Both the position numbers and the translations under genes were made by a program. From positions 1 through 26,993 of IMG/VR virus record IMGVR_UViG_3300042542_002790: a stretch of DNA of 26,993 nucleotides; one strand, given 5' to 3'. The DNA is from a virus. The notes below the pieces were generated by a model. That model ran no database searches and was not told the DNA's origin. It saw only the letters and a list, made by a program, of their open reading frames with translations. Numbering within the stretch: position 1 is the stretch's first letter; each line of letters opens with the position of its first letter. Shown here piece after piece: positions 6,527 to 18,237 of the stretch.

Positions 6527-6922
6527 ATGTGGTTATATAATAATGCTCCCTTAGAGGAGATTCCTGAAGATGCATATGGTTATGTTTATTTGATAACTAA
6601 TAAAGTTACGAATAAAAAATACATAGGTAAAAAACTATTTTGGTTTAGAAAAACTAAAACGGTTAAGGGCAAAAAGAAAAGATTAAAAGTAGAATCAGAT
6701 TGGAGAACTTACTGGTCCTCATCTGATGATGTAAAAAAAGATGTACAAGAATACGGTGAAGAAAATTTTATTAGAGAGATTCTACACATCTGCCCTAACA
6801 AAGGATCATGTAATTATCTAGAAGCACGAGAACAAATGGATAGAAGAGTTCTTGAAACAACTGATTATTACAATGGTCAGATTCAATGTAGAGTACATAG
6901 AACACATATTAAGGTAACATAA
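6527..6922 (+). CDS. SegE-like GIY-YIG family protein
   Basis: A 131-residue protein with a variant GIY-YIG core: YVYLI at residues 19-23 and KKYIGKK about ten residues later, a Lys/Arg-rich stretch, then ESDWRTYWSSSDDVKKDV and CNYLEAREQMDRRVLE, where the Glu could be the metal ligand. I recall this layout, including the MWLYN start, from putative SegE-like proteins of T4-type phages. Those are often assumed to be homing endonucleases but are widely conserved at fixed positions. No ribosome site is visible, and the ATG follows directly after the terminator. Confidence 0.75.
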   Translation: MWLYNNAPLEEIPEDAYGYVYLITNKVTNKKYIGKKLFWFRKTKTVKGKKKRLKVESDWRTYWSSSDDVKKDVQEYGEENFIREILHICPNKGSCNYLEAREQMDRRVLETTDYYNGQIQCRVHRTHIKVT

Positions 6923-8335: not shown

Positions 8336-8587
8336 ATGGCCCTAACACAAATTAAATCTTCCGGTATTTCTGCTAATGCGATAACCATTGAAAAAATTGC
8401 TGCGAACGTTCAAAGTCAACTAGGCGGCGGAGGTGGCGGATCTGGAGTTATTCTTCTCTCCAATACCACGATTACTGCAAATTTTGATATACCCGTAGGA
8501 CAAAATGGATTATCAATTGGGCCGGTTACTGTTGTAGATGGTGCCAATGTAACGATTGCGCCAGGGCAAAGGTGGTTAATACTATGA
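8336..8587 (+). CDS. Short tail-fibre-like protein with glycine linker
   Basis: An 83-residue protein beginning ALTQIKSSGISANAITIEKIA, a motif common at the starts of phage fibre and fibre-tip proteins, then a Gly6 linker and a beta-rich C-terminal segment ending in PGQRWLIL. AAAGGAAA precedes the ATG. It is the first gene after the late promoter, and its stop overlaps the next start (ATGA). The fibre assignment is inferred from motif and location. Confidence 0.65.
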   Translation: MALTQIKSSGISANAITIEKIAANVQSQLGGGGGGSGVILLSNTTITANFDIPVGQNGLSIGPVTVVDGANVTIAPGQRWLIL

Positions 8588-8802
8588 GCATTACTTTTGA
8601 TGCTGATAACAATACTATAACCGAAGATGGCACTACTATAACTTTAAAAAATTTAGCTTTAACCTTACCTTCGGGTAACACATTACAAAGACCTTCAAGT
8701 CCAAACGCCGGTATGATTAGATATAATAATCAAACAAATCAGATTGAAGGATACGATGGAATTAGATGGGTAATTATTCAACAACCTGGAATAACTAACT
8801 AA
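8584..8802 (+). CDS. Fibre-module protein A (GNTxQRP module only)
   Basis: A 72-residue protein carrying one copy of the cassette module: LPSGNTLQRPSSPNAG, then MIRYNNQTNQIEGYDG and RWVII. The module (G-N-T-x-Q-R-P, then RYN/RFN, then E-x-Y/F-x-G, then W) is widespread in phage fibre proteins, often next to collagen-like or glycine-rich tips. Here it makes up nearly the whole protein. ATG 8584 overlaps the preceding stop. It is strikingly similar to the protein at 10906, both in residues and in DNA. Confidence 0.7.
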   Translation: MSITFDADNNTITEDGTTITLKNLALTLPSGNTLQRPSSPNAGMIRYNNQTNQIEGYDGIRWVIIQQPGITN

Positions 8803-8807
8803 CAATC

Positions 8808-9833
8808 ATGACAATTTCTATTTCAGGATCAGGTATTATAGACACAGGAGATGCAGTAATCTCTCTTGCAAATTCTGCACTTTTGATGCCAGTCGGAAAT
8901 ACTACACAAAGACCTATTTCGGCAACGGGTGGGATGCTTAGATTTAATAATCAAACTAATCTTTTTGAGGCATTTACCGGATTAAATTGGGTGACTATAT
9001 CTAGGTCAGATCTAATTGTAGATTATTTAGTTGTCGGAGGTGGAGCTGGCGGAGGACCTGGTCCATCTGGCTACGGCGGAGGTGGGGGAGGCGCTGGAGG
9101 GATTTTGTCCGGCAACATTGTGGCAAGTACAAGCTTTTTTTATTCAGTAACAGTAGGTGCAGGTGGTGCTGCGGCTGCTAATGGTAGTCTATCTACCTTT
9201 TCTGTAACTTCGTTTGGGGGAGGTGCTGGAGGTCTAGGTACTGGCGGTACCTACGTTTCCCCTAATGATGGTACTCCTGGCGGATCGGGTGGCGGGGGAG
9301 CAAGTACAGCAAATCCCACTGCAGGATTTTCCATTGCCGGAATTGGTACTTCGGGTCAGGGGTATTCCGGAGGTAGAGGTGTACATAGAGCAGGCTCCTC
9401 GCCAAACTTGCAGGCCGGTGGAGGTGGCGGCGCGAGTCAAACGGGTCAAGACGGTTCACCCGCATCTGGGGGTAAAGGCGGCGATGGTCAACCATCCTTA
9501 ATAACAGGTGCCAATGTAATCTATGCTGGAGGGGGCGGCGGGGCGGCATTCAATCCAACTGCAACTGCCGGAAATGGTGGAGCTGGTGGCGGTGGTACTG
9601 GAGGAAAATTTCCTGCAGCAGGAACTAATGCTACAGGATATGGTAGTGGAGGCGGCGGAGGAAGTCCCTCCGGGGGTTCTGGAAGTTCGGGTATAATCAT
9701 ACTTGCACATGCCAATACATTTTCAAACGCTGTAGTTTCCGCCGGATTAACCTATACACTTAATACTACATCAAGACCAGGATTCCTAGTTTATTCATTC
9801 ACCGCAGGTACCGGAACAGTTCAATGGGTTTAA
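8808..9833 (+). CDS. Glycine-rich fibre/adhesin protein B
   Basis: A 341-residue protein: a short beta N-terminus, the GNTTQRP module (about residues 28-65), a VDYLVVGGGAGGG entry into a long glycine-rich domain (about 70-295), and a 43-residue C-terminal cap ending FTAGTGTVQWV. The DYLVV-GGG entry and the runs of Gly with interspersed Ala, Ser and aromatic residues mark the glycine-rich domain found in phage receptor-binding proteins. In the S16 phage adhesin such Gly-rich stretches pack as polyglycine-II helices; the same fold here is an inference. The cap is shared with the proteins at 9840 and 11399. A host-recognition role is likely. Confidence 0.75.
   Translation: MTISISGSGIIDTGDAVISLANSALLMPVGNTTQRPISATGGMLRFNNQTNLFEAFTGLNWVTISRSDLIVDYLVVGGGAGGGPGPSGYGGGGGGAGGILSGNIVASTSFFYSVTVGAGGAAAANGSLSTFSVTSFGGGAGGLGTGGTYVSPNDGTPGGSGGGGASTANPTAGFSIAGIGTSGQGYSGGRGVHRAGSSPNLQAGGGGGASQTGQDGSPASGGKGGDGQPSLITGANVIYAGGGGGAAFNPTATAGNGGAGGGGTGGKFPAAGTNATGYGSGGGGGSPSGGSGSSGIIILAHANTFSNAVVSAGLTYTLNTTSRPGFLVYSFTAGTGTVQWV
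9702..9833 (+). repeat. 132-nt terminal repeat, copy 1
   Basis: This is the 3' end of glycine-rich gene B up to and including its stop. It aligns without gaps to 10773-10904 and 12509-12640. A 39-nt core (9770-9808) is identical in all three copies. Confidence 0.85.
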
Positions 9834-9839
9834 AAATTT

Positions 9840-10904
9840 ATGCCAGCAATAATTAATTCAGATAGCGGAGCGGTAACAGGTTCTGCAGGTTTAAAAATTA
9901 CAGGTAACTCCGATGGTATTCTGCACATACAGAATAACGGTGTTACTTCTTTTGTTGTTGCAAATAACTATATCAAAGTTCCTGTAGGAAATACTGCGAC
10001 CAGACCCAGCGTAGCTGAGGTTGGTATGCTAAGATTTAACAATCAATCCAATGCTTTTGAAGCTTATACTGGATCCTGGGTAGATGTTTCCACACGCGAT
10101 ATATCCTTAGAATATTTAGTTATTGCTGGCGGCGGCGGTGGTGGTGGAGATAATCCCAATACCGCAGGGGCAGGCGGCGGTGGCGCTGGCGGTTATTTAG
10201 CGAATACCTTAAGTGCTCGGTATAATGTAAACTATACTGTGACTGTCGGTGGCGGCGGTGTTGGAGGAGTCGGAAATGCTAGTCGAGGAGCAAACGGAAG
10301 CATCTCCGTATTTTCATCTATAACCTGTAATGGTGGAGGTGGCGGCGGTTCTTATCCTATCGCAGATGGAACTTTTGGAGGATCAGGTGGCGGCGCTGCA
10401 TACGCCGGAACCGGAGGAACAGGTACTCCTGGTCAAGGCAATCCAGGAGGAAACAACACTGGTACTAATGGCGGATCCGGAGGCGGAGGTGCAGGTGGAG
10501 CAGGATCCGTAGGGGGACCGAATGGTGCAGCAGGGGGAGTTGGAGCTAACTCCAGCATCACCGGGGTTAGTATAGAAAGAGCGGGTGGCGGTGGCGGAGG
10601 ATCATTTGGCCCTGGCGCTACGGGCGGTACCGCTTCTGGCGGTGGCGGTGCCGGGGGAAATGGAGGAGCCAATGGAGCTAATGCGACTATAAACTCTGGC
10701 GGTGGCGGAGGTGGCGCTGGAAATAGAGCTCCAGTGGGCACAGGTGGATCTGGGGGTTCAGGTATAGTTATTCTTGCACATGCCAATACTGTAGTTAATG
10801 CAGTAGTGTCCGCGGGTTTAACCTACACTCTTAATACCGCATCAAGACCAGGATTCCTAGTTTATTCATTCACCGCAGGTACTGGAACAATTAGTTGGAG
10901 TTAA
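9840..10904 (+). CDS. Glycine-rich fibre/adhesin protein C
   Basis: A 354-residue paralogue of the preceding protein. Residues 1-50 form a new beta N-terminus (GLKITGNSDGILHIQNNG), then VPVGNTATRPSVAEVGMLRF, the LEYLVIAGGGGGGG glycine-rich domain, and the same 43-residue cap. The Gly-rich parts differ strongly from protein B while the cap is nearly identical at DNA level, which suggests domain shuffling. Only 6 nt separate it from the previous stop, with no clear ribosome site, so translation is probably coupled. Confidence 0.75.
   Translation: MPAIINSDSGAVTGSAGLKITGNSDGILHIQNNGVTSFVVANNYIKVPVGNTATRPSVAEVGMLRFNNQSNAFEAYTGSWVDVSTRDISLEYLVIAGGGGGGGDNPNTAGAGGGGAGGYLANTLSARYNVNYTVTVGGGGVGGVGNASRGANGSISVFSSITCNGGGGGGSYPIADGTFGGSGGGAAYAGTGGTGTPGQGNPGGNNTGTNGGSGGGGAGGAGSVGGPNGAAGGVGANSSITGVSIERAGGGGGGSFGPGATGGTASGGGGAGGNGGANGANATINSGGGGGGAGNRAPVGTGGSGGSGIVILAHANTVVNAVVSAGLTYTLNTASRPGFLVYSFTAGTGTISWS
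10773..10904 (+). repeat. 132-nt terminal repeat, copy 2
   Basis: This is the 3' end of glycine-rich gene C. Its last 87 nt (10818-10904) differ from copy 3 at only two positions. The 39-nt core is at 10841-10879. Confidence 0.85.
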
Positions 10905-10905
10905 A

Positions 10906-11136
10906 ATGCCTAAAAATATAAGCATTCAAAACTCCAAGATAACTTTTACCAATAACGAAGATTCGTCTTTAACTTTATTTGGATTGACTCTTGATTCAGG
11001 TTATGTTACATTACCAAGAGGTAATACGTTACAAAGACCAGCCAACCCAGAAGCAGGTATGATGCGTTATAACAATCAAACGAATCAGATTGAGGGGTAT
11101 GATGGTGTTGATTGGAGACAAATAATACAACCATGA
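10906..11136 (+). CDS. Fibre-module protein D (GNTxQRP module only)
   Basis: A 76-residue protein with PRGNTLQRPANPEAGMMRYN followed by NQTNQIEGYDG and W. It ends soon after the module, with no glycine-rich domain. It is the closest relative of the protein at 8584: the stretch AGMxRYNNQTNQIEGYDG is shared. The next gene starts within its stop (ATGA). It may be a short fibre subunit or an exchangeable adapter; neither is proven. Confidence 0.7.
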   Translation: MPKNISIQNSKITFTNNEDSSLTLFGLTLDSGYVTLPRGNTLQRPANPEAGMMRYNNQTNQIEGYDGVDWRQIIQP

Positions 11137-11402
11137 CTATAATAAGAGCAGGCAGAACCAATTCAACAAGTTTATCCATAGAAGCGGATAACAGTGATGA
11201 AATACTTTTTAAGTCTGTCGAAGCCAATGTTATGCTAATAAATAACGACGGAGTTACTTTACTATCGGATTTAGTAATACCATCAGGAAATACATTACAA
11301 AGACCAGCAAATCCTATTACTGGTGAGATTAGATTTAATACCTCAATAAATGCGGTTGAGGGCTATAACGGAAACGATTGGATAACTGTAAGACAAGTAT
11401 GA
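11133..11402 (+). CDS. Fibre-module protein E
   Basis: An 89-residue protein. Its N-terminal 50 residues (MTIIRAGRTNSTSLSIEADN) match the start of the next gene, and the rest is the module: IPSGNTLQRPANPITGEIRF, then EGYNGNDW. It lacks a glycine-rich domain, so it looks like the front half of its downstream neighbour, as if made by tandem duplication with loss or non-gain of the tip. ATG 11133 overlaps the preceding stop. Confidence 0.7.
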   Translation: MTIIRAGRTNSTSLSIEADNSDEILFKSVEANVMLINNDGVTLLSDLVIPSGNTLQRPANPITGEIRFNTSINAVEGYNGNDWITVRQV

Positions 11403-12640
11403 CAATAATAAGATCAAATACAACTACAGGATTAGTAATTGAGCCTGATAATTCTGGTAATATAGTTTTCGTAGCCGATCAAAATAATGTTGCTATGAGA
11501 ATAGACCCATCGGGGGTAGTTGATATTTCTACCAGTAGATTAGTAATCCCAACAGGAAATACTGCACAAAGACCAACTTCCTTAGCCACCGGAATACTTA
11601 GATTTAATACTGAAAATAATAATTTTGAAACTTATACAAATTCCGGATGGGCAACTATTCCTAAAGAATTATCCTTCAACGTAGAATATTTAGTAATTGC
11701 CGGCGGCGGCGGCGGCGGTGGAGGAGCATCAGCTTACGTGGGCGGCGGTGGAGGAGCAGGAGGATTACTTTCGGGTAATACTATTGTAACTATAGGCCCA
11801 AGTTTTAATTATCTATGTACCATTGGAGCAGGCGGTTCGGGCGGCGGCATTCCTGCGCCGGCGAATCCTGGAACAAGCGGTAGCCCAAGTATTTTTGGAC
11901 AGTATATAACGGGTGTAAGTTCTACATATCCGACCGGAGGTGGATCTAGTCCCTTTTCGGGGAATGTGGTTAGTGGAGGTTCAGGTGTAGCTTTCGGTGG
12001 AGGTAATGGTGGCATAGGTACATCTGGTCCAACTGTCTCTCCCTTAAACTCAGGAAATATCGGCGGTTCAGGCGGCGGAGGGGGAACTTTAGGGGTTGCA
12101 TCTCCGGGGGCAGGTAGACTTTTTGGTGGCGTTGGTACTTCGGGGCAAGGGTATCCGGGTGGCGCAGGTAATTATAGAGGAGCTGTTGCGATAGGAATCG
12201 TTGCTGGAGGTGGAGGAGGCAGCGGTGGCGCAGGCGCTAATGCTACTGCAAACGTTTCTGGGGGACCTGGAGGAATAGGAACATCTTCTTCCATCACAGG
12301 CATATCTCAGATCTATGCCGGGGGTGGCGGCGGAGGAGGATATAGTCCTGGAACCACTGCGGGAACAGGGGGCTCCGGGGGCGGTGGTGCTGGAGGAAAC
12401 GGTAATCCTGCCGGTGTCGCCGGAAATGTGAATACCGGAAGTGGCGGCGGAGGACATGGTGGTGGCCCCTCATCCGCTGGCGGTGGCGGCGGTTCAGGCA
12501 TAGTTATTCTTGCGCATTCTAACGTATATACTAATGCTGTAGTTTCAGCAGGATTAACCTACACTCTTAATACCGAATCAAGACCAGGATTCCTAGTTTA
12601 TTCATTCACCGCAGGCACTGGAACAATTAGTTGGAGTTAA
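11399..12640 (+). CDS. Glycine-rich fibre/adhesin protein F
   Basis: A 413-residue protein, the largest of the cassette. It starts MTIIRSNTTTGLVIEPDNS, paralogous to protein E. It then has IPTGNTAQRPTSLATGILRF, a VEYLVIAGGGGGGGG entry, about 260 residues of glycine-rich sequence, and the shared 43-residue cap ending AGTGTISWS. It overlaps the stop of protein E by ATGA. Its cap DNA is almost identical to that of protein C. Probable receptor-binding tip; confidence in the fibre class is good, in the exact role moderate. Confidence 0.75.
   Translation: MTIIRSNTTTGLVIEPDNSGNIVFVADQNNVAMRIDPSGVVDISTSRLVIPTGNTAQRPTSLATGILRFNTENNNFETYTNSGWATIPKELSFNVEYLVIAGGGGGGGGASAYVGGGGGAGGLLSGNTIVTIGPSFNYLCTIGAGGSGGGIPAPANPGTSGSPSIFGQYITGVSSTYPTGGGSSPFSGNVVSGGSGVAFGGGNGGIGTSGPTVSPLNSGNIGGSGGGGGTLGVASPGAGRLFGGVGTSGQGYPGGAGNYRGAVAIGIVAGGGGGSGGAGANATANVSGGPGGIGTSSSITGISQIYAGGGGGGGYSPGTTAGTGGSGGGGAGGNGNPAGVAGNVNTGSGGGGHGGGPSSAGGGGGSGIVILAHSNVYTNAVVSAGLTYTLNTESRPGFLVYSFTAGTGTISWS
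12509..12640 (+). repeat. 132-nt terminal repeat, copy 3
   Basis: This is the 3' end of glycine-rich gene F. Its last 87 nt (12554-12640) are nearly identical to copy 2, and the 39-nt core is at 12577-12615. The first 45 nt are more diverged, so identity rises toward the stop codon. Confidence 0.85.
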
Positions 12641-12653
12641 TGGAGAAATAAAA

Positions 12654-13022
12654 ATGGCACACTATGCTTTTTTAGATGCAAATAATATAGTTACAGAAGT
12701 TATCGTTGGTAAAGACGAAAACGAGGATGGCATTCTTTGGGAATTGCACTATGGTGCCTTTAGAAACCAAGTATGCAAAAGAACATCTTATAATACCAGA
12801 GGTGGAGTACACAATTCAGGCGGCACACCATATAGAAAAAATTATGCCGGAATAGGTTATACATACGACGAGAGCAGAGATGCTTTTATTCCACCTAAGC
12901 CATTTAATTCTTGGGTGTTGAATGAAACAACTTGTCTTTGGGATGCACCTACTCCTATGCCAGAAGATGGTAAGCCATATCGTTGGGACGAAGATACTAC
13001 TAGCTGGATAGAAATAACATGA
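12654..13022 (+). CDS. Conserved marine-phage virion-associated protein, paralogue 1
   Basis: A 122-residue protein with a conserved core: RTSYNTRGG, then GGTPYRKNYAGIGYTYDE, SWVLNETTCLWDAPTPMP and a final YRWDEDTTSWIEI. I recall this family from the tail-fibre regions of T4-like marine phages; its function is unknown. It is paralogous to the protein at 14707, with most of the core conserved and a different N-terminal insert (GKDENEDGILWELHYGAF). TGGAGAAATAAAA before the ATG is a good ribosome site. The stop overlaps the next start. Confidence 0.75.
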   Translation: MAHYAFLDANNIVTEVIVGKDENEDGILWELHYGAFRNQVCKRTSYNTRGGVHNSGGTPYRKNYAGIGYTYDESRDAFIPPKPFNSWVLNETTCLWDAPTPMPEDGKPYRWDEDTTSWIEIT

Positions 13023-13210
13023 CAACGAAAATATTTGTATCTCAAATAGATACACAATCTGCTGCAAACGTAGCATTAACGGCTTTACCTCAAAGTGCTA
13101 CACTTGTTGCGGGGAATAACATTACAATTGCGGCGAATGGTCAAATTAGTTCAACTGCTACGGGTACCGCAGCAACAGAAATACATCCCTTTTTAAACAT
13201 GGGAGCTTAA
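13019..13210 (+). CDS. Short fibre-region protein, 63 residues
   Basis: A small Ala/Thr-rich protein (KIFVSQIDTQSAANVALTAL, LVAGNNITIAANGQISST) with predicted beta strands and no membrane segment. It starts by an ATGA overlap and ends 4 nt before the next gene. The GNNITIAANGQISS pattern resembles short repeats in phage fibre stalks. No further assignment. Confidence 0.6.
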   Translation: MTTKIFVSQIDTQSAANVALTALPQSATLVAGNNITIAANGQISSTATGTAATEIHPFLNMGA

Positions 13211-13214
13211 ACAA

Positions 13215-13544
13215 ATGCCAACAGTATATAAAATTTTAGGACAAGCTTTACCAACAGCAAATACATTTACTGATATCTATAGAGTACCTACGGCGAATAG
13301 TACTGTGGTTTCTACACTAAATGTTTGTAATTTAACATCATCAAATGTCTCTTTTAGAATAGCTACAAGACCGAATGGAAATACTATAACAGGAGCCCAT
13401 TATATTGCTTATGACATTGCATTAGGAGCTCAAGATGCCATTGGCATGACAATGGGAGTCACGTTAGCTGCAAATGATGTAGTTACAGTATTTTCTTTTC
13501 AAGGAAATGTAGCATTTAATCTTTACGGTACAGAGATCTACTAA
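13215..13544 (+). CDS. Small virion-type beta protein, 109 residues
   Basis: It begins MPTVYKILGQALPTANTFTD then IYRVPT, followed by VVSTLNVCNLTSSNVSFRIA, HYIAYDIALGAQDA and a C-terminal FNLYGTEIY. This matches a beta-sandwich-like family I recall from marine phage structural regions (TVYKxLGQ start, IAYDxxxGAxD centre). Its exact place in the particle is unknown; location in the fibre cassette suggests a fibre or baseplate decoration. Confidence 0.65.
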   Translation: MPTVYKILGQALPTANTFTDIYRVPTANSTVVSTLNVCNLTSSNVSFRIATRPNGNTITGAHYIAYDIALGAQDAIGMTMGVTLAANDVVTVFSFQGNVAFNLYGTEIY

Positions 13545-13546
13545 AA

Positions 13547-14506
13547 ATGGCAATTATTCGTCATAGTCAAAGAGCACATTCTACAAAAAACGTAGAAAAG
13601 GCAAGGTTGCCGATTATTATTACACCCGGTGCACTTCCTATTATGGTTGACTATCTTGTAGTTGCCGGAGGAGGCGGAGGTGGTGTAGGTGGTGGTGGTG
13701 GTGCAGGTGGATTTTTAGAATCCAATGTAGGTATTATGCCTGGTACAAACGTTGCTATTACTGTGGGTGGAGGCGGTATCGCCGCATATTCTGGAGGATT
13801 AGCTCCGTCAACGATAATCGGAAATGGAAGTAATTCTAGTATTATAGGTAGTGTTTCTTCGGTTATCAGTATAGGTGGGGGTAGTGGTGCCACAGCCAAT
13901 ACACGTTTTGGTGGTGGAATCGTGTCAGCCAACGGACAAACATATAAGGGCGCAAACGGCGGTTCGGGTGGAGGTTCGGGCGGAAATAGTGACACTGGAA
14001 GCACAGACGTACCGGGAGGATCAGGATTCGGATTTCCCGGAACACAAAGAATTAGTCAACAAGGATTTCCTGGAGGAAGAGGATTTGGAAATCCGGGTTC
14101 TCCTTCTGGTGGCGGAGGTGGAGCAGGTGGTGCGGCACAAGGAGCAGGAGCACCTTCAACCACAGGAGGGGTAGGTCTATCATCCTCAATTTCTGGATCT
14201 CCTGTTACATACGCAGGAGGAGGTGGGGGTGGAAGTTATAATACTATAACAGGCGCGGGTGGTGCAGGTGGCGGCGGCGATGGCACCACCGGTGGTGCGA
14301 CTTCTCCCAGCGGAATTGCAAATACTGGCGGAGGAGGCGGAGGAAATGGTGGTGGCGGCACTAGCGGACAGGGGGGTTCGGGTATTATTATACTTAGACA
14401 TCCGAACACCATATCAACTGCTATAACTACAGGCGCCAATATCACGTCATCGGGCGGATTTACCATATATACTTATAATCAGTCTGGAACTTTTAGATTT
14501 AACTAA
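13547..14506 (+). CDS. Glycine-rich fibre/adhesin protein G
   Basis: A 319-residue protein with a different build from B, C and F. A 33-residue N-terminus (MAIIRHSQRAHSTKNVEKAR) lacks the GNTxQRP module, and MVDYLVVAGGGGGG starts the glycine-rich domain. The end, GGSGIIILRHPNT then FTIYTYNQSGTFRFN, is a different cap from the shared 43-residue one. The domain architecture still indicates a fibre tip. It may be an alternative receptor binder attached through a different adapter. Confidence 0.72.
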   Translation: MAIIRHSQRAHSTKNVEKARLPIIITPGALPIMVDYLVVAGGGGGGVGGGGGAGGFLESNVGIMPGTNVAITVGGGGIAAYSGGLAPSTIIGNGSNSSIIGSVSSVISIGGGSGATANTRFGGGIVSANGQTYKGANGGSGGGSGGNSDTGSTDVPGGSGFGFPGTQRISQQGFPGGRGFGNPGSPSGGGGGAGGAAQGAGAPSTTGGVGLSSSISGSPVTYAGGGGGGSYNTITGAGGAGGGGDGTTGGATSPSGIANTGGGGGGNGGGGTSGQGGSGIIILRHPNTISTAITTGANITSSGGFTIYTYNQSGTFRFN

Positions 14507-14511
14507 TAAAT

Positions 14512-14706: not shown

Positions 14707-15081
14707 ATGAGTCATTTTGCTAAAGTAGAAAATGGTATTGTAACTCAAGTTATTGTTGCAGAACAAGATTTTATTGATTCTGGAGCAGTAGGCGATCCAT
14801 CCACATGGGTTCAAACAAGTTATAATACTTACGCTGGACAACATAGAAACGGCGGCACACCTTTACGCAAGAACTATGCCGGAATTGGTATGGTGTATGA
14901 TGCGGTAAAAGACGCATTCTACGCACCTCAACCATTTCCAAGTTGGGTTCTTGATGAACAAACTTGCATTTGGAATGCACCTGTTCCAATGCCTGCAGAT
15001 GCCGGTCAAGGTGACCCACCAAAGTTCTATACCTGGGATGAGGCTACAACCAACTGGGTTGAAGTCGTTCCGCAGCAATAA
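14707..15081 (+). CDS. Conserved marine-phage virion-associated protein, paralogue 2
   Basis: A 124-residue paralogue of the protein at 12654, with MSHFAKVENGIVTQVIVAEQ at the start, TWVQTSYNTYAGQHRNGGTP, LRKNYAGIGMVYD, SWVLDEQTCIWNAPVPMP and a final YTWDEATTNWVEV. The N-terminal half is closer to the common marine-phage form than its paralogue. A strong AAGGAGAAAA precedes the ATG. It is the last gene before a terminator, so it likely closes the late fibre operon. Function unknown. Confidence 0.78.
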   Translation: MSHFAKVENGIVTQVIVAEQDFIDSGAVGDPSTWVQTSYNTYAGQHRNGGTPLRKNYAGIGMVYDAVKDAFYAPQPFPSWVLDEQTCIWNAPVPMPADAGQGDPPKFYTWDEATTNWVEVVPQQ

Positions 15082-17301: not shown

Positions 17302-17532
17302 ATGAGTACATTCAATGTTCGAGAGTTAATGGATCGAATAAAAGAGATGCAGTATTATAAAGTTTTAATACCTCTAGAAGACGATCTTGAATTCAGAGGG
17401 CCTGTGCCTTTTGATATCAAGATCACCAAAGATAAAATAGCTCAATTTACTATATTGGCATCATCATATGAAGACGCAGAACAAAAAGCCTGGAGATACA
17501 TCAATGGCGAAGACGGAACCGAAAGTTTATAG
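17302..17532 (+). CDS. Small phage protein of unknown function, 76 residues
   Basis: A soluble protein with FDIKITKDKIAQFTILASSY followed by EDAEQKAWRYING, a beta-beta-alpha pattern like that of other short ORFs of this phage (for example 25468, with VKITMFVEANDVDEAFDLAE). It may be a small single-domain fold reused in the genome. Its end overlaps the next gene by 29 nt. Confidence 0.6.
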   Translation: MSTFNVRELMDRIKEMQYYKVLIPLEDDLEFRGPVPFDIKITKDKIAQFTILASSYEDAEQKAWRYINGEDGTESL

Positions 17533-17839
17533 TGCAAATGTAATTGCTGTTCTTGAGAACGGTGACGCTGTACTAGAGCTACCAGAACAAATGCTTCAAG
17601 AATTGGGCTGGAAAGAGGATGACGTACTTGATATCTCAAAGAAAAAAGATGGTTCGATTGTCATGGTTAAACTTGAAACAAATCACGACCTGAAAAAAGT
17701 AACAACTAAACAAGCCATTCATTCAATCAAAAATTATCCTTTTTCAAGAGAAGGCACAGTATATCATTGTACTATATGTGACAAATACTGGAAACGGGAA
17801 AAAGATGCCAAACTAGACAAATGCGTACCAAAAGATTAA
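17504..17839 (+). CDS. AbrB/MazE-fold protein with C-terminal cysteine cluster
   Basis: A 111-residue protein. Residues about 20-57 (LENGDAVLELPEQMLQELGW, then DDVLDISKKKDGSIVMVKL) match the swapped-hairpin DNA-binding fold of AbrB transition regulators and MazE antitoxins. A C-terminal YHCTICDKYW and KC give His88, Cys89, Cys92 and Cys107, enough for one zinc. The start at 17504 is chosen for the GGAGATA ribosome site and because the protein then begins at the fold. No MazF-like toxin is adjacent. It may be a transcription regulator or an antitoxin neutralising a host toxin; neither is shown. Confidence 0.72.
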   Translation: MAKTEPKVYSANVIAVLENGDAVLELPEQMLQELGWKEDDVLDISKKKDGSIVMVKLETNHDLKKVTTKQAIHSIKNYPFSREGTVYHCTICDKYWKREKDAKLDKCVPKD

Positions 17840-17931: not shown

Positions 17932-18237
17932 ATGGTTAGGAAAAAACGATCTGATCGCAGGCACATTGTTTACAGTATCACCAACACTGTAACTGGCGAT
18001 TATTATATCGGCATTACTCAAGGCTTTCGACAGAAAGATCTTAAAGTGCGTATTCAAAAGCATATTCGCAGGGCCCTGACTGAAAACAAAGACTGGGCTT
18101 TGTGCAAATCAATTCGTCGTTACGGCGCAGAAAACTTTTATTCTCAAATTCTAGAAGTAGTACGTGGCAAGCCAGCTGCTCATAGTTTTGAACGGCAGCT
18201 GATTGCTGATTATTCACCTGCTCTTAATACACAATGA
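17932..18237 (+). CDS. GIY-YIG nuclease, apparently leaderless
   Basis: A 101-residue single-domain nuclease: HIVYSITN (VYSI at 13-16), YYIGIT (YYIG at 24-27), KVRIQKHIRRAL (Arg40, His44) and a C-terminal SFERQLIADY with Glu87 as the metal ligand. All positions expected for catalysis are present. I recall similar short GIY-YIG proteins as stable residents of marine T4-like genomes. ATG 17932 coincides with the predicted start of transcription, so no ribosome site is possible on that mRNA. The stop overlaps the next start (ATGA). Confidence 0.85.
   Translation: MVRKKRSDRRHIVYSITNTVTGDYYIGITQGFRQKDLKVRIQKHIRRALTENKDWALCKSIRRYGAENFYSQILEVVRGKPAAHSFERQLIADYSPALNTQ

What the first reader, a model, noticed from the sequence alone, without database searches (positions are those of the whole stretch)
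9702..12640. Near-identical 132-nt gene ends could drive tip exchange
The last 132 nt of three glycine-rich genes align without gaps, with a 39-nt core identical in all three and 87 nt nearly identical (two differences) between copies 2 and 3. Identity holds at silent positions and rises toward the stop, while the glycine-rich parts differ. This fits gene conversion or recombination at a shared 3' anchor, a way to swap receptor-binding domains.
Basis: partly seen in the sequence, partly recalled or inferred. Interest (0 to 1): 0.65.

Follow-up and report, generated by a model that had tools for sequence, protein, structure and literature searches.

The report
Shuffled phage tail-tip genes
A virus of bacteria carries several side-by-side genes for glycine-rich tail tips that share almost the same ends, and comparison with a close relative shows the variable middles have been replaced wholesale between those ends, which is probably how such viruses change what they stick to.

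Summary
The last 132 nt of three glycine-rich genes (c1 8808-9833, c2 9840-10904, c3 11399-12640) align without gaps. A 39-nt core is identical in all three, and c2/c3 match at 85 of the last 87 nt. Silent identity in the ends is far above codon-usage expectation; in the glycine-rich tips it is about random. I found a sister virus (three IMG/VR contigs, about 97% identical in the flanks, same gene order). It carries the core exactly in two genes, but its tips are unrelated at silent sites. Neighbouring blocks alternate sharply between near-identity and saturation, and caps and one hinge are most alike between non-corresponding loci, so tips were replaced by recombination. Four other virus pairs show tips replaced, or gene number changed, between conserved gene ends. 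A good AlphaFold model resembles known phage tail-fibre tips. The closest precedent is adhesin swapping in T-even gp38. I rate this a new variant of a known kind; the recombination enzyme is inferred.

The parts
8808..9833 (+). c1: glycine-rich tail-tip gene (head, hinge, Gly_rich_2 tip, cap)
   Evidence: ORF; PF21722 Gly_rich_2 E 7.6e-18
9840..10904 (+). c2: glycine-rich tail-tip gene; its first 57 codons are 55/57 identical to the sister virus, its tip is not
   Evidence: PF21722 E 5.9e-19; AlphaFold model pLDDT 87.2, pTM 0.80
11399..12640 (+). c3: glycine-rich tail-tip gene, taken here to start at ATG 11399 (MTIIRSN)
   Evidence: PF21722 E 1.1e-10; start position
13547..14506 (+). c4: fourth glycine-rich gene with a different C-terminal class; its tip is also replaced in the sister virus
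   Evidence: PF21722 E 3.9e-10
9702..9833 (+). 3' cap of c1
10773..10904 (+). 3' cap of c2
12509..12640 (+). 3' cap of c3, chimeric between a c2-like and a sister-c2-like cap
9770..9808 (+). 39-nt core, copy 1
10841..10879 (+). 39-nt core, copy 2
12577..12615 (+). 39-nt core, copy 3
9978..10136 (+). 5' hinge of c2 (PVGNTxxRP...LRFNNQ...EYLVIAGGG), nearly codon-identical to the hinge of the sister's c3
   Evidence: (37 of 44 matching residues codon-identical)
8886..9047 (+). 5' hinge of c1
   Evidence: repeat D5
11546..11710 (+). 5' hinge of c3
   Evidence: repeat D5
8572..8802 (+). stand-alone hinge-module gene without a tip
10906..11136 (+). stand-alone hinge-module gene without a tip, 97.8% identical in the sister virus
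11133..11402 (+). stand-alone hinge-module gene without a tip
8370..14510 (.). mosaic island; outside it the sister virus is about 97% identical

Best explanation
This is an array of tail-tip (putative receptor-binding) genes in a tailed phage. Each has a head, a hinge, a hypervariable glycine-rich tip and a C-terminal cap of beta strands that closes the domain. Tips, with all or part of their cap, are replaced wholesale by homologous recombination between the conserved stretches that flank them: the hinge on the 5' side, and the cap or gene end on the 3' side. Donors are co-infecting relatives or sister loci of the array. Because any crossover or conversion that keeps a working protein must join at these stretches, they are repeatedly homogenised and stay alike at silent sites while the tips between them are unrelated. 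Shown: the mosaic, silent-site homogenisation, cross-locus similarity, and replacement between conserved ends in several virus pairs. Inferred: receptor binding, the enzyme (a UvsX-type recombinase), and whether donors are other genomes or sister loci.
For: Cap versus tip contrast at silent sites. Sister virus of the same gene order and about 97% flank identity with unrelated tips. Silent divergence flips abruptly: c2 head 0.035, cap 0.36, next gene 0.065, c3 head 0.41, c3 cap 0.235, next gene 0.008. Cap and hinge affinities cross loci: corresponding caps c2/B2 and c3/B3 match at 104 and 107 of 132 nt, non-corresponding c1/B3, c3/B2, c1/B2 at 118, 116, 115; c2 and sister c3 share the hinge; the closest sister tip to c1 is that of B2. 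Chimeric c3 cap. Other pairs: L031/L033 tip replaced with head and cap kept, L137/L151 tip and cap replaced, L020/L061 two genes against one with homology resuming 69 nt before the stop, L159/L170 one against two with homology resuming 45 nt before the stop. The fold matches Pam3 tail fibre gp24 (Z 13.9) and the Bxb1 tail tip (Z 14.5). More distant relatives encode a RecA/UvsX-type protein.
Against: Only two closely related genomes carry this core, so the direction and order of events are not resolved. The core is an unusually short island: outside it c2/B2 silent sites are at random expectation, which plain homologous recombination of long tracts does not predict. The sister virus's tips are identical in three contigs, so exchange is not frequent on that scale. 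Tip alignments of glycine-rich sequence are noisy. Several recombination tests on caps were not significant.
Confidence: 0.75

Rival explanations
1. Exchange is targeted: the 39-nt core (or a nearby site) is cut by a phage homing-type endonuclease, and repair copies short tracts between caps, which is why the identical island is so short and sharp.
For: The core is identical in five copies in two genomes while silent sites on both sides of it are saturated in c2/B2. A SegE-like GIY-YIG gene lies 1.4 kb upstream of the island (6527-6922, PF19835 E 3.1e-38) and another GIY-YIG gene at 17932-18237. Published work places nuclease genes at boundaries of exchange between phages (title and abstract of PMC10448857).
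Against: No cleavage site is known; the core is absent from the c1 cap of the third relative, L090, and 28 more distant caps show no codon preference for it (113/302 identical, 99.9 expected). The two nucleases also occur in the sister in the ordinary flank.
Confidence: 0.1
2. Selection on the DNA or RNA of the core itself (codon choice, RNA structure, regulatory site) keeps it identical, with no exchange.
For: Sharp borders of the identical stretch.
Against: No excess RNA structure (z +1.3), no Rfam match, promoter- and terminator-like sites at chance level, no codon conservation in the wider family. It would not explain mosaic silent divergence of whole blocks or cross-locus similarity.
Confidence: 0.06
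3. Recent duplication plus fast divergence of tips under positive selection, without recombination.
For: The genes are tandem paralogues sharing head and cap modules.
Against: Tip silent codons are at random expectation even between genomes with 5% silent divergence in the flanks; selection on amino acids does not saturate silent sites. Corresponding loci are not the most alike.
Confidence: 0.05
4. A diversity-generating retroelement or an invertible or shufflon-type switch varies the tips.
For: Variable regions near the 3' ends of repeated genes.
Against: No reverse transcriptase, no serine or tyrosine recombinase, no inverted repeats in 8500-13500; tips differ by indels and whole replacement, not at adenines only. 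The records are fragments.
Confidence: 0.02

Closest known systems
T-even phage gp38 adhesins (T2, PP01, S16 type)
   Same: Conserved N- and C-terminal regions around glycine-rich motifs and hypervariable segments; adhesin specificity swapped by recombination between conserved motifs (Tetart et al. 1998, cited in PMC6027323 and PMC12529663); polyglycine-II sandwich fold in S16 and PP01 (PMC12892980).
   Different: These proteins match Pfam Gly_rich_2 and no gp38 family; they form a tandem array of four paralogues with sequence-related hinges and caps; the unit replaced is the whole tip, with or without the cap.
Cyanophage Pam3 tail fibre gp24
   Same: Glycine-rich loops on a beta-sandwich; Z 13.9 over 168 residues; distal residues proposed as receptor-binding (PMC9608196).
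   Different: Single fibre gene with a helical N-terminal domain; no array or exchange described in the passages read.
Mycobacteriophage Bxb1 tail-tip protein (9d93 Qb)
   Same: Z 14.5 over 174 residues, 33% identity.
   Different: Siphophage tail tip; no array known to me.
Metaviromic islands of marine phages
   Same: Host-recognition genes are the variable islands between otherwise near-identical phages (PMC3909814).
   Different: That study maps islands by read recruitment; it does not resolve exchange anchors within a gene family.
Adhesins of haloarchaeal hafunaviruses
   Same: A glycine-rich tail-fibre adhesin in a hypervariable region that correlates with host range (PMC8651126).
   Different: Archaeal viruses, gp38-like architecture, single adhesin gene.

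Membership tests
Pfam Gly_rich_2 (PF21722) | Score above curated cut-off 24.3 bits | tested here: met
   65.8, 69.4, 42.3 and 40.6 bits for c1-c4
Phage tail-fibre tip with glycine-rich domain (Pam3 gp24 type) | Glycine-rich loops on a beta-sandwich core | tested here: met
   Model pLDDT 87.2; VIA-align Z 13.9, rmsd 2.4, 168 residues against 7ypx
Phage tail-fibre tip with glycine-rich domain (Pam3 gp24 type) | Present in virions and binds the host receptor | not testable with these tools
   Needs proteomics and binding assays
T-even gp38 adhesin | Sequence match to a gp38 family | tested here: not met
   Only Gly_rich_2 reported at E up to 0.001 in Pfam
T-even gp38 adhesin | Conserved ends flanking a glycine-rich hypervariable part, swapped by recombination (works like) | tested here: met
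T-even gp38 adhesin | Sits on the tip of a gp37 long tail fibre | not testable with these tools
   No gp37 gene was identified in the window; the record is a fragment
Diversity-generating retroelement | Reverse transcriptase | tested here: inconclusive
   None found in this record or four related records, all possibly incomplete
Diversity-generating retroelement | Adenine-directed substitutions between template and variable repeat | tested here: not met
   Tips differ by indels and replacement throughout
Invertible tail-fibre switch or shufflon | Inverted repeats around variable segments | tested here: not met
   0 inverted repeat pairs of at least 20 nt in 8500-13500
Invertible tail-fibre switch or shufflon | Site-specific recombinase gene | tested here: inconclusive
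   No PF00239 or PF00589 match in this and four related records, all possibly incomplete

The most novel reading that the evidence does not exclude
The clade-specific 39-nt core is a targeted exchange site: a phage GIY-YIG endonuclease encoded beside the island cuts it, and repair moves tail tips between loci and genomes. That would be a dedicated tip-cassette exchange system rather than ordinary homologous recombination.
Probability: 0.1. Interest if true: 0.75.

Novelty: new variant of a known kind. Interest (0 to 1): 0.45.

Why it matters
Phages outrun host resistance by changing their tail tips. Here two near-identical genomes and several other natural pairs show where tips are cut and joined: at the hinge and at the cap or gene end. 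It extends the T-even adhesin-swap idea to arrays of Gly_rich_2 genes, which are found in many uncultivated viruses, and gives a sequence rule for spotting exchangeable tips in metagenomes.

Tried and rejected
Universal DNA constraint on the core: 28 more distant caps show codon identity near expectation (113/302 versus 99.9), and the third relative's c1 cap lacks the core. A degenerate scan for the same peptide in any codons found only the sister contigs; an earlier scan used a wrongly written pattern and is disregarded. RNA structure, Rfam, promoter and terminator scans were negative. Homogenised caps as a general rule in phages with several such genes: mostly not, since within-contig cap codon identity is near expectation in most contigs and raised only in some (L107, L021, L024). 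L031/L033 caps are no more alike than their flanks (93.3% versus 92.5%), so they show a junction upstream of the cap, not homogenisation. Two more samples of the third relative (L090/L091) carry the same tips and both contigs break inside the c2 tip, so they add no allele. A nucleotide search of public phage records found only short 68-75% matches. RecA-family genes were not found in this record or the sister records, only in more distant relatives. Papers by Tetart 1998 and Trojet 2011 were not held; they are cited through other papers.
Full report
What is there. The window is a 26,993-base virus record. It has ribonucleotide reductase genes, a SegE-like GIY-YIG endonuclease and other genes of a T4-like kind. 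From about 8370 to 14510 lies a block of tail-tip-like genes. Four of them (c1 8808-9833, c2 9840-10904, c3 11399-12640, c4 13547-14506) match Pfam Gly_rich_2. Each of c1-c3 has a head, a hinge (PVGNTxxRP...LRFNNQ...EYLVIAGGG), a glycine-rich tip and a C-terminal cap. Three short genes consist of the hinge module without a tip.

The observation. The last 132 nt of c1-c3 align without gaps; 39 nt are identical in all three and c2/c3 differ twice in 87 nt. The run occurs nowhere else in the window. Codon usage predicts about 14 identical codons per cap pair; 24 to 29 are seen (P 7e-5 to 1e-7). For the tips the fraction is 0.22-0.43, about the random level. Identity rises right up to the stop only for c2/c3.

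A sister virus. Scans of IMG/VR found three contigs of one close relative ('B'; L084, L085, L086 and longer versions) with the core exactly twice. Flanks are about 97% identical and the gene order is the same. No other virus contig encodes the peptide RPGFLVYSFTAG in any codons. Codon-level comparison shows a patchwork. The fraction of silent changes at matching residues is 0.05-0.07 in upstream genes, 0.035 in the c2 head, 0.36 in the c2 cap, 0.065 in the next gene, 0.41 in the c3 head, 0.235 in the c3 cap and 0.008 in the gene after it. Between heads and caps the tips are saturated at all four loci. c1 and c4 have a different C-terminal class from their counterparts in B.

Cross-locus signal. 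Corresponding caps are the least alike (c2/B2 104, c3/B3 107 of 132) and non-corresponding ones the most (c1/B3 118, c3/B2 116, c1/B2 115, c2/B3 114). c2 and B3 share a hinge nearly codon for codon, although heads follow position. The closest tip to c1 in B is that of B2. The c3 cap matches B2 in its first part and c2 in its last part (max-chi-squared permutation p 0.0002; 30 triplets were examined, so about 0.006 after correction). This fits units that moved between loci or were imported from relatives, with joints in the hinge and at the cap or gene end.

A detail that does not fit neatly. Outside the core the c2/B2 cap is at random silent expectation (9 of 21, 8.1 expected) while the core is identical. 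Long-tract recombination alone would not leave so short an island. Repeated short conversions, or targeting of the core by a nuclease, would. The core is not codon-conserved in 28 more distant caps, is missing from the c1 cap of a third relative and has no RNA structure, so a family-wide DNA signal is unlikely; a clade-specific site remains possible.

Other viruses. Among fetched loci, four further pairs show the same kind of event. In L031/L033 the tip is replaced while head and cap stay flank-like. In L137/L151 tip and cap are replaced up to the stop. In L020/L061 two genes stand against one, and homology resumes 69 nt before the stop at TASRSGYK, the place equivalent to the core. In L159/L170 one gene stands against two, and homology resumes 45 nt before the stop. 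Silent homogenisation of caps within one genome is not general; it is clear here and in the sister and only hinted at in a few other contigs.

What the proteins are. An AlphaFold2 model of c2 (38 sequences, pLDDT 87.2, pTM 0.80) matches the Bxb1 tail tip (Z 14.5) and the Pam3 tail fibre gp24 (Z 13.9) over the glycine-rich domain; the next matches are at 5.7. The cap forms the last beta strands, which explains its protein conservation but not its silent-site identity. In Pam3 the distal ends of the glycine-rich loops are proposed to bind the receptor (PMC9608196). Receptor binding here is an inference from the fold.

Mechanism. Most likely: homologous recombination between hinge and cap or gene end, with donors among relatives or sister loci. 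More distant relatives encode a RecA/UvsX-type protein. No reverse transcriptase, serine or tyrosine recombinase was found in the records searched, though all may be fragments. The main rival is endonuclease-targeted exchange; two GIY-YIG genes lie in the window.

Known or new. T-even gp38 adhesins have the same logic, conserved ends around glycine-rich hypervariable segments with specificity swapped by recombination between conserved motifs (Tetart et al. 1998, cited in PMC6027323 and PMC12529663). Host-recognition genes are known variable islands in marine phages (PMC3909814). The present case is not a gp38 by sequence. New here are an array of Gly_rich_2 tip genes with homogenised caps and the mapping of both joints in closely related natural genomes.

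Noticed in passing
12654-13022 and 14707-15081: Two paralogous genes of phrog_7759 (unknown function). In fetched loci 63 of 81 such genes start within 150 nt, mostly 0-20 nt, after a glycine-rich ORF; a candidate tail-fibre chaperone by analogy with Pam3 gp24-gp25.
   Followed up: partly
L004:6311-6385: Contigs of the sister virus that are otherwise about 99.95% identical differ by five closely spaced changes in this phrog_7759 gene, which looks like a small conversion tract.
   Followed up: no
6527-6922 and 17932-18237: Two GIY-YIG endonuclease-like genes, one SegE-like (PF19835 E 3.1e-38), near the mosaic island.
   Followed up: partly
8572-8802, 10906-11136, 11133-11402: Three stand-alone hinge-module genes without a tip; they could be adaptors, or remnants left by loss of a tip.
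   Followed up: no
L090 and L091, contig ends: Both contigs of the third relative break inside the c2 glycine-rich tip, as expected if assembly fails in a hypervariable or repeated part.
   Followed up: no
17468-17839: Small protein with a weak MazE-like antitoxin match (E 7e-4, below Pfam cut-off).
   Followed up: no
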